NCBI GenBank assembly: GCA_022578605.1
Contig: MU394159.1
Location: forward strand, 23,627 to 87,626
Length of the DNA stretch: 64,000 bases
Direction of reading: 5' to 3'
Source: Camillea tinctor
Lineage: Eukaryota > Ascomycota > Sordariomycetes > Xylariales > Xylariaceae
This document shows positions 19,306 through 50,051 of this stretch, piece after piece. Positions within the stretch are counted from its first letter, which is position 1; each line of letters starts with the position of its first letter. Below the pieces are notes generated by a model. The model ran no database searches and was not told where the DNA came from. It saw only the letters and a program-made list of their open reading frames with translations. The position numbers and the translations under genes are program-made.

Positions 19306-20697
19306 TCAACTAGACCTACCTTCTACATCCCTTATCACTTCATCGCTGGCAATCTGGATCAGGTGAGACCCAATACCCGCGCCTTTGCCCCAGCCCCGGT
19401 GTGCTTCCTGGATGTCTTCCATCTGCCAGATGCTCTTGATATTGACGTCGATTTTACCCTCCTGCACCAGTGCAAACAAGGAGCGCAGGTTCGGCTGGAA
19501 AGTAGAATCGTCCCGCGTGATATAGTAAAATGATGTACGCCTCTTCGTGAACAAGTTGGTATTACGAAGTAAAAGCTTAACCATTGGACCCACGGTAGAG
19601 AAACCTGAGGGTTTGGTATTGCTGTTCCCACCTGGGGACGACGAAGAGCCGGGAAGTGATTGCAGATTCGATCCGTACCCCACTGTAATAATGGGAGTCA
19701 GCAATTGTCATATTAGGTAGCTTTTGTACTTTTAAGACCGTGTTTCGGGAGTTGAAACTCGTACGAACTTGTACGCTTGGTCGTGATAGGAAATTTTGAC
19801 TCTCGGGCCGGGTCGAGACAGGCCAAAAGGGGGGAATGGACCACTCCAAAAATTGCTTACCGAGAATGCCAGGCTCATCACCCACGGGAAGGATCTCGTA
19901 CGACTCATCCCAGCTCCTAAAGCCGAGCGGATCGAAGACAGCATGCGCGCCTCCGAGCACTTGCATCGCACCTATCCATTCCTTATTGCCGTAGTCGAAG
20001 ACACCGGCTGCTCCTGCGGCTAGCACTGCCTTGTGATTCTTCGGCGATGCCGTCCCGTACACAGAGGCCCCACGCAGCCGACACAACGTGGATAGCGCGG
20101 ACCCTACGGCGCCACTGAGACCGTGCACGAATACCCGCTGTTTCGACTGCACATCTGCTGTCTGGAACACCATAGCATAGGCTGTCGCCCAGTCAAGCAC
20201 AAGTGCGGTAGCGTGCCGTGGGGAGATGCCCGCTGGGACGCGCACAGCGTGCTTGGCGGGCAGGTTCACGAGTGTGGCCTCGGCATCGTAGACGGTGAGG
20301 CTGGCGACAAGGTCGCCTGGCTGGAAGAAGCCAGATGTAGTCTGCACAACGAGCCCCACGAGGCAGTAGCCCGGGGTCAGGGGCGCTTTGCGCTGCACTA
20401 AAATATTGGTGTCAGTAATTATTATACCAAATAACCTCTCGACCCATGAAGCAGACTTAAAGGGGTAATAGGGGGCTTCCGAGATTACTCACTCGGGTAT
20501 ACACCCTGGCGCATGTTAACGTCAGCACCCGAGAAACCGGCATACAGCGGAGCGACTTGGACTTCTCCCTCGCTAGGAGCCGGAATCGTGCTCTCTTCTA
20601 CGTGGACCTTGGAGGCATCGCCGAACTCTGAGATGACAACCTTGCGGATAGGCGTGACTGAGGAGTTAGAGGAAGATTTACTAGGGCAAGTGAACAT
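19306..20697 (-). CDS. Medium-chain dehydrogenase/reductase (quinone-oxidoreductase type)
   Basis: Three exons on the minus strand, 20493-20697, 19861-20397 and 19306-19682, give 372 residues. Exon joins restore the family's expected text (YP-MQRKAPLTPGY and GIL-VGYGSNLQ). The N-terminal GroES-like half contains VVISEFGDASKV and GFSGADVNMRQGVYP. The Rossmann half has GLSGAVGSALSTLC for NAD(P)H binding. The catalytic zinc cysteines and histidine of alcohol dehydrogenases are absent, so this is the zinc-independent quinone oxidoreductase/VAT1-like branch, probably a cytosolic NADPH-dependent reductase of unknown substrate. Intron 2 (19683-19860) is an introner-like element shared with the GFA gene at 47413. 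Intron 1 (20398-20492) may be a shorter relative. A convergent neighbour lies 315 bases away. Confidence 0.85.
19683..19860 (-). repeat. Introner-like element (copy 1), intron 2 of the dehydrogenase
   Basis: A 178-nt spliceosomal intron (minus strand, GTAAGC to ACAG) that matches the 167-nt intron at 47512-47678 along its whole length, by eye at about four of five positions. The main differences are transitions plus a 10-nt insertion after GTCTCG. Shared exact blocks include AAGTTCGTACGAGTTT, TACCTAATATG and CTGACTCCCATTATTA, the last including the branch site. It interrupts a codon in phase 1. Confidence 0.85.
20398..20492 (-). repeat. Possible short introner relative, intron 1 of the dehydrogenase
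   Basis: A 95-nt intron whose first 11 bases (GTGAGTAATCT) equal those of the 47512-47678 element and whose 3' end carries TTACTGACxCC at the same distance from the acceptor. The middle is much shorter and only loosely alike. The ends overlap splice signals, so some of the match may be chance. Confidence 0.4.
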
Positions 20698-32474: not shown

Positions 32475-32593
32475 ACGTACGACCATAGGACTCAGAATAT
32501 TCGGCATCCCGTCCGCTCTGCCCTAGACAAGCTGGGTACCGCCAGATTAGTAGTTGGGTCGGTGACGACCAGCGAATCCCTGGTGTTGTACGT
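32475..32593 (+). rRNA. 5S ribosomal RNA gene (divergent copy)
   Basis: A 119-nt stretch with the classic fungal 5S blocks: ACGACCATAGGA near the 5' end, ATCCCGTCCGCTCT, TTAGTAGTTGGGT, ACCAGCGAATCCCTGG and TGTTGTACG. Helix I pairs ACGTACGAC with the 3' GTTGTACGT, and helix II pairs ACTCAG with CTGGGT. Both are intact although the bases differ from the usual sequence, suggesting compensatory change. A T-run at about 32595-32601 fits a Pol III terminator. Dispersed 5S genes are normal in Pezizomycotina. Whether this variant is expressed is unknown. Confidence 0.85.
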
Positions 32594-32805
32594 CTTCTTT
32601 TTGGCACGTTTTTGTTCCCTTTTGCCGCCAACTATATATCAACATGTCAACTCAGGTTGTTACTACTCGACGGAAGAGACTCTAGTATTAAAATCATTGA
32701 GATGTTTGTTTATCAACTAGCGAAAGGGGCCTAAGAGAGCCATGTGCTTGAAATAGCCGTCAATAACTTCTCAAACTCACAAGATTAATTTTTGGTCTGT
32801 TAAGT

Positions 32806-46817: not shown

Positions 46818-46916
46818 CGCCCGAGGGGGGTCTCGAACCCCCAGCCTTCGGATTGGACTTTGATCCATGAGATTAGAGTAAAAGTCCGACGCTCTAGCCA
46901 ATTGAGCTACCCGGGC
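46818..46916 (-). tRNA. tRNA-Lys (anticodon UUU) with intron
   Basis: On the minus strand the 99-nt gene folds fully: acceptor GCCCGGG with CTCGGGC, D-arm GCTC/GAGC, anticodon stem TCGGA/TCCGA, and T-arm GGGGGTTCGAGACCCCC (perfect B box). The anticodon loop reads CTTTTA, then a 25-nt intron, then A, so the anticodon is TTT and the intron lies one base after it, the canonical place. The discriminator base is G. Confidence 0.93.
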
Positions 46917-47412: not shown

Positions 47413-48174
47413 ATGGCAGCTAACGCCGACAAGACCAAGCCTTATATCCCACTGTCTGGCTGTGCTAGTGGTGGCTGGTCTACTGAAGATGAAGCAACAG
47501 CTACATGCTTCGTGAGTAATCTTTGGAGTCGTTTATTCCCCTCTTTGGCCTGTCTCGCGAGTCAAAATTGCCTATCATGGCTAAACGTATAAGTTCGTAC
47601 GAGTTTTGAGTCCCGAGACAACGGTCTAAGAGTAAAAAAGTTACCTAATATGGCAGTTACTGACTCCCATTATTAAAGTGCGGCGCGGTGCAACTAGCCT
47701 TTGTAAGTCAAACATTACTAGGTCCTTGTTCGATGTTTTACGGGCTATGTACTAATACATGACTTGAACAATACTAAGCCAACCCAAGGTCAAGGCCTTT
47801 TGAATACCTTTGTTTGCAACTGCTCAGACTGTCGTAAGATCACGGCATCTATGTTCGCATCCAATTTTACTGTTGCAGACACACACCTGAAGCATCTGCG
47901 CGGCCACGAAAACCTGAGGACTTATAGTCAACAGCATTCTATTGCCTCTGGAAAAACGATGACCAACTACTTCTGTTCCATTTGTGGCACGCTTATGTAC
48001 CGTGTTGGTGCTGCTTTCCCAGGCAAGAGTATTCTGCGTATCGGGACTGTTGATGACTTCAATCTCCACGAAACAAAGTTACGACCTCAAATGGAACTGT
48101 TTACTAAGGACCGTGTAAGCTGGTTTAGCGGTGTCGAAGGCGCCAAAAAGTTTGAAGCCATGTTTCAAAATTGA
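47413..48174 (+). CDS. GFA/CENP-V-type zinc-binding protein
   Basis: Three exons, 47413-47511, 47679-47702 and 47779-48174, give 172 residues. Exon 2 is only 24 nt and encodes CGAVQLAF, which the family requires. The zinc ligands are complete: Cys in SGCASGG region and CGAVQL, CNCSDC (CxCxxC), and FCSICGTLMYR (CxxC). Other family text includes ITASMFASNF and YSQQHSIASGKTMTNYFC. Proteins of this glutathione-dependent formaldehyde-activating family are small zinc proteins whose catalytic role is doubtful outside a few bacterial enzymes, so no reaction is claimed. Intron 1 (47512-47678) is an introner-like element also found in the dehydrogenase at 19306. The exon 3 acceptor is a weak AAG. The protein is probably cytosolic. 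Confidence 0.87.
47512..47678 (+). repeat. Introner-like element (copy 2), intron 1 of the GFA gene
   Basis: A 167-nt intron (GTGAGT to AAAG) that matches the intron at 19683-19860 from donor to acceptor. It interrupts the gene in phase 0, whereas the other copy is in phase 1. GTCTCG (47552-47557) can pair with CGAGAC (47614-47619), and the shared TCGTACGA is self-complementary, so a hairpin RNA is possible. The branch site lies in the conserved TTACTGACTCCC segment. Confidence 0.85.
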
Positions 48175-49530: not shown

Positions 49531-50051
49531 GGCCACATAGGGCAGTGGCTAAGCACTTGGCTCCCAATAGTGTGGAATACTAATGTGTATGGGTTCGAGT
49601 CCCGCTGTGGTCGCTAATAACCACTCGTTTTCCAGGGCCTGAAACTTTTTATCGCCAACGGTGCCATTGGCGATAAAGCACTATCGTCGATAACCTCGCC
49701 GATTTCAAATCTCTCTCGTTGCCAACAGCCCTTTTCGATAACCTACCTCACTATCGCCAACAGTCCCCACACAACAGGGTATCTATTGCTGACCTAACCC
49801 TCCCCCATCGCCAATAGTCCTATTTCAACAATAGCCGACTATTGCCAACATTCAAAAACCGGCGAGGCCCTGGAGAGGGATAGCCACGGTAGAAGGATTT
49901 CCCGTATGTACTGATAACACGCTGGTACGGGGCCTCCCCTTCCCTGGGTTGAAGCCCTTACTCCAGACGTCCCATACTCTAAATAGGGTCACATGATGTA
50001 GCTAGGTAGTTAGCTCAGATATCTGGACGTTAAATATATCATCATCATCAT
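49531..50051 (+). mobile_element. tRNA-derived SINE with target-site duplication
   Basis: About 520 bp. The head (49531-49612) is tRNA-like: acceptor GGCCACA pairs with TGTGGTC, an A-box-like AGTGGCTAAGCAC lies near the start, and GGTTCGAGTCC is a perfect B box, so it carries an internal Pol III promoter. The anticodon arm does not fold well, so it is not a working tRNA. The body repeats ATCGCCAA several times, including a 9-bp inverted repeat at 49650-49675. The tail is (ATC)n at 50037-50054. CATCGGTCCAGTGG (49517-49530) and CATCGGCCCAGTGG (50052-50065) flank it, a 14-bp target duplication with one mismatch. It sits 60 bp beyond the TPR pseudogene's 3' end. Confidence 0.75.

What the first reader, a model, noticed from the sequence alone, without database searches (positions are those of the whole stretch)
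19683..19860. Two unrelated genes share one intron: introner-like elements
Intron 2 of the dehydrogenase (minus strand, 178 nt) and intron 1 of the GFA gene (47512-47678, + strand, 167 nt) align from donor to acceptor, with 16-base exact blocks (AAGTTCGTACGAGTTT; CTGACTCCCATTATTA). The exons around them are unrelated, the introns lie in different phases (1 and 0), and the genes are 28 kb apart on opposite strands, so neither gene duplication nor common descent of the introns explains it. Whole-intron copies are the mark of introner-like elements, described in some Dothideomycetes and other eukaryotes as a source of new spliceosomal introns. Two copies in 64 kb suggests a sizeable family in this genome.
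Basis: partly seen in the sequence, partly recalled or inferred. Interest (0 to 1): 0.88.

Follow-up and report, generated by a model that had tools for sequence, protein, structure and literature searches.

The report
Copied introns landing at ATG sites
A fungus carries about ninety or more copies of one intron scattered through unrelated genes, nearly always placed just before a T and very often inside an ATG, which points to a site-seeking step in how new introns are made.

Summary
Confirmed and extended. The two introns align end to end (79%). They belong to a family matched at 94 genomic places in Camillea tinctor (Xylariales), a host named through annotated proteins identical to my spliced translations. 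A third, decayed copy (95 nt) is the other intron of the dehydrogenase gene.

The copies are GT-AG introns (donor GTGAGT, branch CTGAC), mostly shown in coding exons in sense. Two features are not random. Target: T follows the intron in 60 of 66 copies and A^TG is hit in 33 of 66, against 9 and 2 of 43 ordinary introns, without target-site duplication. Near-terminal inverted repeats start at nt 5 and end 2 nt before the intron end, the geometry published for Xylariales stwintrons; these copies are not stwintrons.

Verdict: a new introner family, a variant of a known kind. A survey found ascomycete introners without TIRs or TSDs, and Xylariales stwintrons are reported at random sites; the YA^TG preference is the novel point. 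An RNA intermediate is likely but unproven; no RNA data or relatives' DNA were available.

The parts
19683..19860 (-). Introner copy 1: intron 2 of a zinc-binding dehydrogenase gene, 178 nt, donor GTAAGC, acceptor CAG, phase 1, target G^TG
   Evidence: annotated protein P0241 identical across the junction
47512..47678 (+). Introner copy 2: intron 1 of a GFA/Mss4-like gene, 167 nt, donor GTGAGT, acceptor AAG, phase 0, target C^TG inside TTC^TGC
   Evidence: annotated protein P0001 identical across the junction
20398..20492 (-). Introner copy 3, internally shortened to 95 nt: intron 1 of the same dehydrogenase gene, target A^TG in a Met codon
   Evidence: two weak end matches (6.4 and 8.7 bits); seen through the annotated protein; coordinates; best-scoring new hit of the two-ended scan
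19309..20697 (-). Host gene of copies 1 and 3: zinc-binding dehydrogenase, 372 aa, three exons (stop codon not included)
   Evidence: tblastn of P0241 on the window; homologues
47413..48171 (+). Host gene of copy 2: GFA-domain (Mss4-like) protein, 172 aa, three exons by my splicing (stop codon not included)
   Evidence: tblastn of P0001 on the window; PF04828 in the precomputed annotation

Best explanation
This is an introner family of Camillea tinctor: one spliceosomal intron of about 178 nt that copied itself into about ninety or more sites in a largely star-like burst and is now decaying. Shown: copies are whole introns bounded by GT and AG, in sense in coding exons wherever the frame could be judged clearly, in unrelated genes, inserted at the junctions tested without adding or removing exon bases, with strong preference for a host site YA^TG and with near-terminal inverted repeats. 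Inferred: the excised intron RNA, its ends held together by the near-terminal stem, is put back into an expressed gene by a step that prefers A^TG (reverse splicing into RNA followed by reverse transcription, or joining of intron RNA at a DNA break), and the new copy is spliced at once, so the host is hardly hurt. Inferred: the shape (repeat geometry, branch-to-acceptor distance, a central AG|TTYGT) suggests descent from the symmetric stwintrons of Xylariales that lost their inner splice sites and now move as plain introns.
For: Family: 94 places with a match; 90 copies read (77, ten regions, three decayed ones). Anatomy: 66 of 77 copies had clean GT..AG at profile-defined ends, 72 of 77 with ends re-read automatically; donor GTGAGT 65 of 72, branch CTGAC 42 of 72. 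Coding and sense: after splicing, 51 of 60 copies are open 30 or more codons on both sides in sense, against 29 of 60 antisense and 28 and 29 of 60 after a 1- or 2-nt shift. Annotated proteins match two junctions. Pfam domains run across the junction in six of ten genes tested. Host-derived target: Met at one junction is invariant in 52 of 52 homologues, Cys at the GFA junction in 58 of 59. Target: +1 T 60 of 66, +2 G 49 of 66, -1 A 40 of 66, A^TG 33 of 66; ordinary introns of the same loci +1 T 9 of 43, A^TG 2 of 43; information is confined to -2..+3. No TSD. Inverted repeats: best register nt 5 with nt -3, 10.5 of 15 pairs against 6.25 in 44 ordinary introns. Burst: 54 strong copies average 85.5% to consensus, pairwise close to the star expectation; no pair of the 77 above 88%.
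Against: No RNA intermediate was seen; nothing here separates RNA from DNA movement decisively. The paired arms show no covariation beyond shuffles (33 to 99 of 500 shuffles reach the five measures), so the stem may be inherited rather than needed; the self-complementarity of the consensus (21) lies below the highest of 60 shuffles (22). A preference for A^TG is not what pairing with the U5 loop would predict (recalled knowledge). Sense placement is strong but not complete: in 9 of 59 copies the antisense frame is longer, 3 ties. Presence or absence in relatives could not be tested, as no DNA of relatives is held. Stwintron ancestry rests on geometry; the central AG is not invariant.
Confidence: 0.8

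Rival explanations
1. A non-autonomous DNA transposon with terminal inverted repeats that inserts at YA^TG without target duplication and happens to carry both splice sites.
For: Imperfect terminal inverted repeats (12 of 15 consensus pairs), a short and nearly palindromic target CA^TG in 18 of 66.
Against: No TSD. In the two end-pattern lists (up to 3 mismatches; read by eye) I saw no 5' end and 3' end of different copies on one strand within 10 kb that would mark a long element; most tested copies are in coding sense orientation, whereas a DNA element should also sit in intergenic DNA in both orientations; the repeat is imperfect and begins at nt 5, not at the element's end.
Confidence: 0.2
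2. Random capture of intron RNA at double-strand breaks, as proposed by Fekete et al. for Xylariales stwintrons, with no site preference.
For: Seamless insertion where tested, no TSD, same near-terminal repeat geometry.
Against: +1 T in 60 of 66 and A^TG in 33 of 66 against 9 of 43 and 2 of 43 in ordinary introns is not random; the model would need a break-maker with this preference.
Confidence: 0.08
3. Rolling-circle (Helitron-like) insertion between A and T.
For: A^T target without TSD resembles the Helitron target (recalled, no call).
Against: Ends are GTGAGT and mostly CAG or TAG, not the recalled TC and CTRR; -1 is A in only 40 of 66.
Confidence: 0.04
4. Gene duplication or gene conversion spread of one intron between related genes.
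For: Some loci hold two or three copies.
Against: Host genes tested are unrelated; copies within one locus are no more alike than copies elsewhere; flanking exons share nothing beyond -2..+3.
Confidence: 0.01

Closest known systems
Xylariales [D1,2] sister stwintrons (Fekete et al.; PMC8469720 abstract and parts of the results read, PMC9024468 abstract only, PMC12403724 abstract and three sections read)
   Same: Same fungal order; near-identical Xylaria ones are 184-185 nt; seamless insertion without TSD; near-terminal inverted repeats whose 5' arm starts at nt 5 of the donor and whose 3' arm lies 2 nt before the acceptor; branch-to-acceptor distance 14 there (Xylariaceae), 15 in 44 of 72 here.
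   Different: Camillea copies are plain introns, not nested; repeat sequence is different (GUAUAAAAAC there, GTAATTTTTGGAGTC here); 288 stwintrons are reported at random sites without exon bias, here a strong YA^TG bias; the main text of PMC12403724 does not mention Camillea.
Type-2 cropped sister introns of Hypoxylon sp. CO27-5 and EC38 (PMC8469720)
   Same: Canonical introns derived from symmetric stwintrons that spread on their own.
   Different: The one EC38 example whose length I read is 93 nt, and the type carries a central palindrome TTTCTAGAAA in all but one case; here about 178 nt and no close match to that palindrome (2 mismatches at best, in 3 of 66 copies).
Introner-like elements of Dothideomycetes (Collemare et al. 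2015, PMC4457414, parts 1-3 of 4 read)
   Same: Whole-intron copies in unrelated genes, two per gene in places, decay into ordinary introns.
   Different: Different class of fungi; in the parts read I saw no target-site preference reported.
Introners at large (Gozashti et al. 2022, PMC9860276, results and discussion read)
   Same: Meets their working definition: a group of introns alike up to or near both splice boundaries.
   Different: They state that ascomycete families have no TIRs or TSDs; this family has imperfect near-terminal inverted repeats and a sharp target preference, and no TSD.

Membership tests
Introner (Gozashti et al. 2022 sense) | Several introns in one genome alike up to both splice boundaries (their families hold five or more) | tested here: met
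   66 of 77 copies GT..AG at profile ends; 94 places with a match
Introner (Gozashti et al. 2022 sense) | Located in unrelated genes as introns | tested here: met
   Different Pfam families in eight of ten genes scanned, none in two; two annotated proteins match the spliced form. Splicing in RNA itself was not testable here
Introner (Gozashti et al. 2022 sense) | Recent gain: position empty in relatives | not testable with these tools
   No DNA of relatives held. Homologous proteins show no or almost no gap near three of five tested junctions (0 of 52, 0 of 52, 1 of 59); the second hydrolase junction has gaps in 50 of 52 and the dehydrogenase window in 48 of 49
TIR DNA-transposon introner (Huff type) | Target-site duplication | tested here: not met
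   0 of 72 share a first base between intron start and next exon; flank repeats at chance level
TIR DNA-transposon introner (Huff type) | Terminal inverted repeats | tested here: inconclusive
   12 of 15 consensus pairs, starting at nt 5 and ending at nt -3
[D1,2] stwintron | A G before the internal donor that is removed in two-step splicing | tested here: not met
   -1 is G in 12 of 66; nine such copies with long enough flanks were tested: removing the G lengthens the two-sided frame in none, shortens it in six, leaves it equal in three
[D1,2] stwintron | Near-terminal inverted repeat starting at donor nt 5-6 and ending 2 nt before the acceptor (reported for part of the stwintrons) | tested here: met
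   Best register (5,-3) of 81 tried; published geometry read
[D1,2] stwintron | Central AG|T junction at the centre of symmetry | tested here: inconclusive
   Consensus AG|TTYGT at positions 91-97 of 178; T93, T94, T97 invariant in 34 copies but A91 28 of 34, G92 27 of 34
Helitron | 5'-TC and CTRR-3' ends | tested here: not met
   Ends GTGAGT and CAG, TAG or AAG; the Helitron ends are recalled

The most novel reading that the evidence does not exclude
Camillea holds the predicted missing product of the Xylariales stwintron system: a full-length symmetric intron that has lost its inner splice junction and spreads as a plain intron through an RNA intermediate, with an integration step that reads YA^TG. 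That would mean that intron gain in ascomycetes is carried out by a sequence-preferring machinery, not by accident at random breaks.
Probability: 0.4. Interest if true: 0.82.

Novelty: new variant of a known kind. Interest (0 to 1): 0.64.

Why it matters
How ascomycete introners move is open: a large survey found them without TSDs or TIRs (PMC9860276), and Xylariales stwintrons have TIRs but are reported at random sites (PMC12403724). A family with one narrow target (A^TG) gives a concrete handle: any proposed mechanism must produce it, and it can be tested with a reporter carrying or lacking YATG. The family also shows whole introners shrinking toward ordinary intron size (120, 105, 95 and 59 nt examples), with both introns of one gene being introner-derived.

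Tried and rejected
Target-site duplication: several models (TSD GTG, AGTG, CAGTG, TG) were worked through by hand; each would change the reading frame or needs a matching base that is absent; one search tested this by counting and found none. That the exonic TG is brought by the element: rejected at two junctions, where the Met or Cys codon is conserved in homologous proteins. Stwintron status: rejected. RNA structure by covariation: not supported beyond shuffles; RNAalifold gave only a weak fold, -4.45 kcal/mol. Local duplication as source of several copies per locus: not supported. Excess on small contigs: 14 of 52 against an expected 16.5% share estimated by interpolating contig lengths, p 0.06, not claimed. 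A first two-ended scan with fixed 30-nt 3' ends missed the window's 95-nt copy and was replaced by a branch-centred one, whose null (reversed sequence) is 0 against 3 new hits at score 20 but 9 against 19 at score 10, so only its top three are used. Phase: 33 of 51 junctions are phase 1, 29 of 51 by the shorter flanks; the excess beyond the ATG and TG background (p 0.04 and 0.006) is noted, not leaned on. Rfam on the window: only a 5S rRNA and two tRNAs. Paper searches brought nothing closer. Rows dropped: of 88 cmsearch rows I kept 77; dropped were eight opposite-strand matches of the same copies and three weak or partial rows, two of which came back as decayed copies. For the count of 94 places only rows with at most 2 mismatches were used (the tool also listed only the first places of its 110 matches); the 94 are matches, not all read. 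The 66-copy figures use ends set by profile match plus hand extension to the homologous AG; the Fisher tests used 65 of 72 (60 of 66 plus six more ends corrected by hand) and 34 of 72 (automatic ends, which gave +1 T 67 of 72 and probably picked a too early AG in three of the copies shown).

Full report
Observation. My hand-spliced GFA protein is identical to a 172-aa Mss4-like protein of Camillea tinctor, and my spliced dehydrogenase fragment (285 aa) to part of a 372-aa zinc-binding dehydrogenase of the same species, both on an 87,626-bp contig, the length of contig C109 that holds the window. The species lies in Xylariales, Sordariomycetes. The public gene models therefore splice both introns as described; whether RNA reads support them is not known here.

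Family. With the 167-nt copy as query the genome (44.7 Mb, 154 contigs) gives 40 scored matches of 65 candidates, most nearly end to end. Further queries and three patterns bring the number of distinct places with a match to 94. The searches score only the best candidates, so the family may be larger; on the other side not all 94 were read. Reversed-pattern controls gave 4 against 110, 0 against 34 and 0 against 38. I read 77 copies on 63 sources, ten more in short regions and three decayed ones, 90 in all. Of the 77, 66 have GT and AG at the profile-defined ends.

Anatomy. Median length is 175.5 nt (72 copies). Donor GTGAGT is found in 65 of 72, branch CTGAC in 42 of 72, and the branch-to-acceptor distance is 15 in 44 of 72; motif-defined ordinary introns of the same loci have GTGAGT in 9 of 43 and a median length of 66 (that length is bounded by the motif used). 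The consensus carries an internal pair of arms (GGGAGTCAAAA with TTTTGACTCCC) and a near-terminal pair (GTAATTTTTGGAGTC with GACTCCCATTATTAC, 12 of 15 paired). The best of 81 registers for the near-terminal pair is nt 5 with nt -3: 10.5 of 15 pairs on average over 66 copies against 6.25 in 44 ordinary introns. The consensus folds better than shuffles (z -3.7), single copies moderately (median z -2.1; 36 of 66 below -2), and its self-complementarity score of 21 compares with a shuffle mean of 11.9 and maximum of 22 in 60 shuffles. The pairs do not covary beyond shuffles.

Genes and frame. With the intron removed, 51 of 60 copies with long enough flanks are open for 30 or more codons on both sides in sense, against 29 of 60 in antisense and 28 and 29 of 60 with a one- or two-base shift; for 48 codons the figures are 44, 11, 13 and 20. 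Over 300-nt flanks the sense frame is longer in 47 of 59, the antisense frame in 9, with 3 ties. Of ten spliced genes scanned, eight have a Pfam match, of different kinds (methyltransferase, FAD-binding, GST, short-chain dehydrogenase, AMP-binding, HET, peptidase S28, amidase), and in six the best match runs well across the junction; two had no match. No copy was shown to be intergenic, but no full census was possible.

Seamless insertion into host sequence. In the L019 hydrolase gene three copies interrupt one frame; at the first junction the split Met codon is Met in 52 of 52 homologues and no gap lies within ten residues; at the third there is again no gap (0 of 52); the second lies in a region with gaps in 50 of 52 homologues and is uninformative. 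At the GFA junction Cys is conserved in 58 of 59; at the dehydrogenase junction the residue is V or I in 49 of 49, though gaps lie nearby in 48. Met and Cys codons hold TG, so the TG after the intron is old host sequence at least at two sites.

Target. In 66 copies, +1 is T in 60, +2 G in 49, -1 A in 40, -2 C or T in 45; A^TG occurs in 33 and CA^TG in 18. In 43 coding-like ordinary introns of the same loci +1 T occurs in 9 and A^TG in 2; in all 105 motif-defined ones, 17 and 3 (Fisher p 3e-14 and 7e-7 against the 43, with 65 of 72 and 34 of 72 on the family side). Information is 1.69 bits at +1, 0.75 at +2, 0.52 at -1, and at most 0.18 elsewhere within ten bases, over 60 copies. The ten later regions were chosen by patterns that hold intron bases alone; nine of ten show T at +1 (sequences printed; counted by eye). 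The three best decayed copies, found without using exon bases, all sit at A^TG. In frame, 22 of 51 junctions split a Met codon and 7 of the 12 phase-0 junctions precede Trp. There is no target duplication.

Age. Fifty-four strong copies average 85.5% to the consensus, range 80 to 93%, and pairwise identities are near the expectation of a star (mean excess 2 points; some pairs up to 13 points, so there are mild subfamilies). No pair of the 77 exceeds 88%. The burst was therefore probably brief, and no recent copy was seen among those read.

Decay to ordinary introns. Beside full copies there are internally shortened ones keeping both ends: 95 nt in the window (20492-20398), 59 nt in L078, 105 in L077 and 120 in L079; L082 is another, its start not fetched. 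The window copy is the other intron of the same dehydrogenase, so both introns of this gene come from the family.

Several copies per gene. Nine loci hold two or three kept copies on one strand. In L019 (three), L023 (816 and 2077) and L042 (two) they share one open frame; the L036 pair I judge to be one transporter gene from the peptides, without a call. Counting strong copies only, two to three same-gene pairs are seen where about 0.15 is expected if 12,000 genes (an assumed number) were hit at random, p 0.01 to 5e-4; the L023 pair counted there is 2077 and 2384, 128 nt apart, whose shared frame I read from the printed peptide. Copies in one locus are no more alike than others, so certain genes seem to be hit repeatedly, as Collemare et al. 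noted for one gene (PMC4457414).

What it works like and what it is. It meets the working definition of introners in PMC9860276 (results read). It fails the TSD test of the DNA-transposon type. Its geometry is that of the Xylariales sister stwintrons: there the 5' repeat starts at donor nt 5-6, the 3' repeat lies 2 nt before the acceptor and the branch distance is 14 in Xylariaceae (PMC12403724, sections 11, 14 and 16 read). Those authors report 288 stwintrons at seamless, random sites without exon bias. The Camillea copies are not stwintrons: the needed G before the donor is present in 12 of 66, and in none of the nine of these that could be tested does removal of the G lengthen the frame. 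The centre of the consensus reads AG|TTYGT, which looks like a relic of the inner junction; this is inference.

Mechanism. Shown: precise whole-intron copies, mostly demonstrably sense and coding, seamless where tested, YA^TG. Inferred: an RNA intermediate, because the copied unit is exactly the excised intron and sits in sense in genes. I put this at about 0.55 within the overall reading, DNA transposition at 0.2. Random break capture is disfavoured by the target bias. What reads A^TG is unknown.

Print. In the held library no paper holds 'camillea' together with 'introner' or 'stwintron' (four papers hold two of the three terms, all with 'camillea' 0). Other searches, seen as listings: 'introner-like elements', 'introner' from 2022, 'Camillea tinctor' (four papers, not opened), 'Biscogniauxia' with 'intron gain' (none). 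Supplements of PMC9860276 could not be read, so the family may be in its tables. van der Burgt et al. 2012, Torriani et al. 2011 and Huff et al. 2016 are recalled or seen only as cited, not read.

Noticed in passing
window 20398-20492: The other intron of the dehydrogenase gene is a shortened family copy; both introns of this gene are introner-derived.
   Followed up: yes
L019 2031-3087, L023 816-2556, L042 2085-3174, L012 1992-2695, L036 1126-2253: Genes or short stretches with two or three family copies that are no more alike than copies elsewhere, as if certain genes attract insertion.
   Followed up: partly
L077, L078, L079, L082: Short derivatives (59 to 120 nt where measured) keeping both ends of the introner: a visible path from introner to ordinary-size intron.
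   Followed up: partly
L044 2069-2245 (-): A copy whose donor reads AT instead of GT; state of that gene not examined.
   Followed up: no
L045 2084-2208 (-): A copy that lost its 5' third; a GTAAGT lies at the new 5' edge and may serve as donor.
   Followed up: no
window 47413-48171: The GFA-type protein is closer to Coniochaeta (83%) and to Mycena, a basidiomycete (80%), than to the Xylariales in the list (72-73%): paralogy or horizontal transfer, not examined.
   Followed up: no
G000 contig C109: Four family matches in 87.6 kb on this small contig, two of them under 1 kb apart, plus the decayed copy.
   Followed up: partly
window 32475-32594, 46818-46916, 49531-49613: 5S rRNA gene and two tRNA matches; the tRNA at 46818 spans 99 bases, which suggests a tRNA intron.
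   Followed up: no
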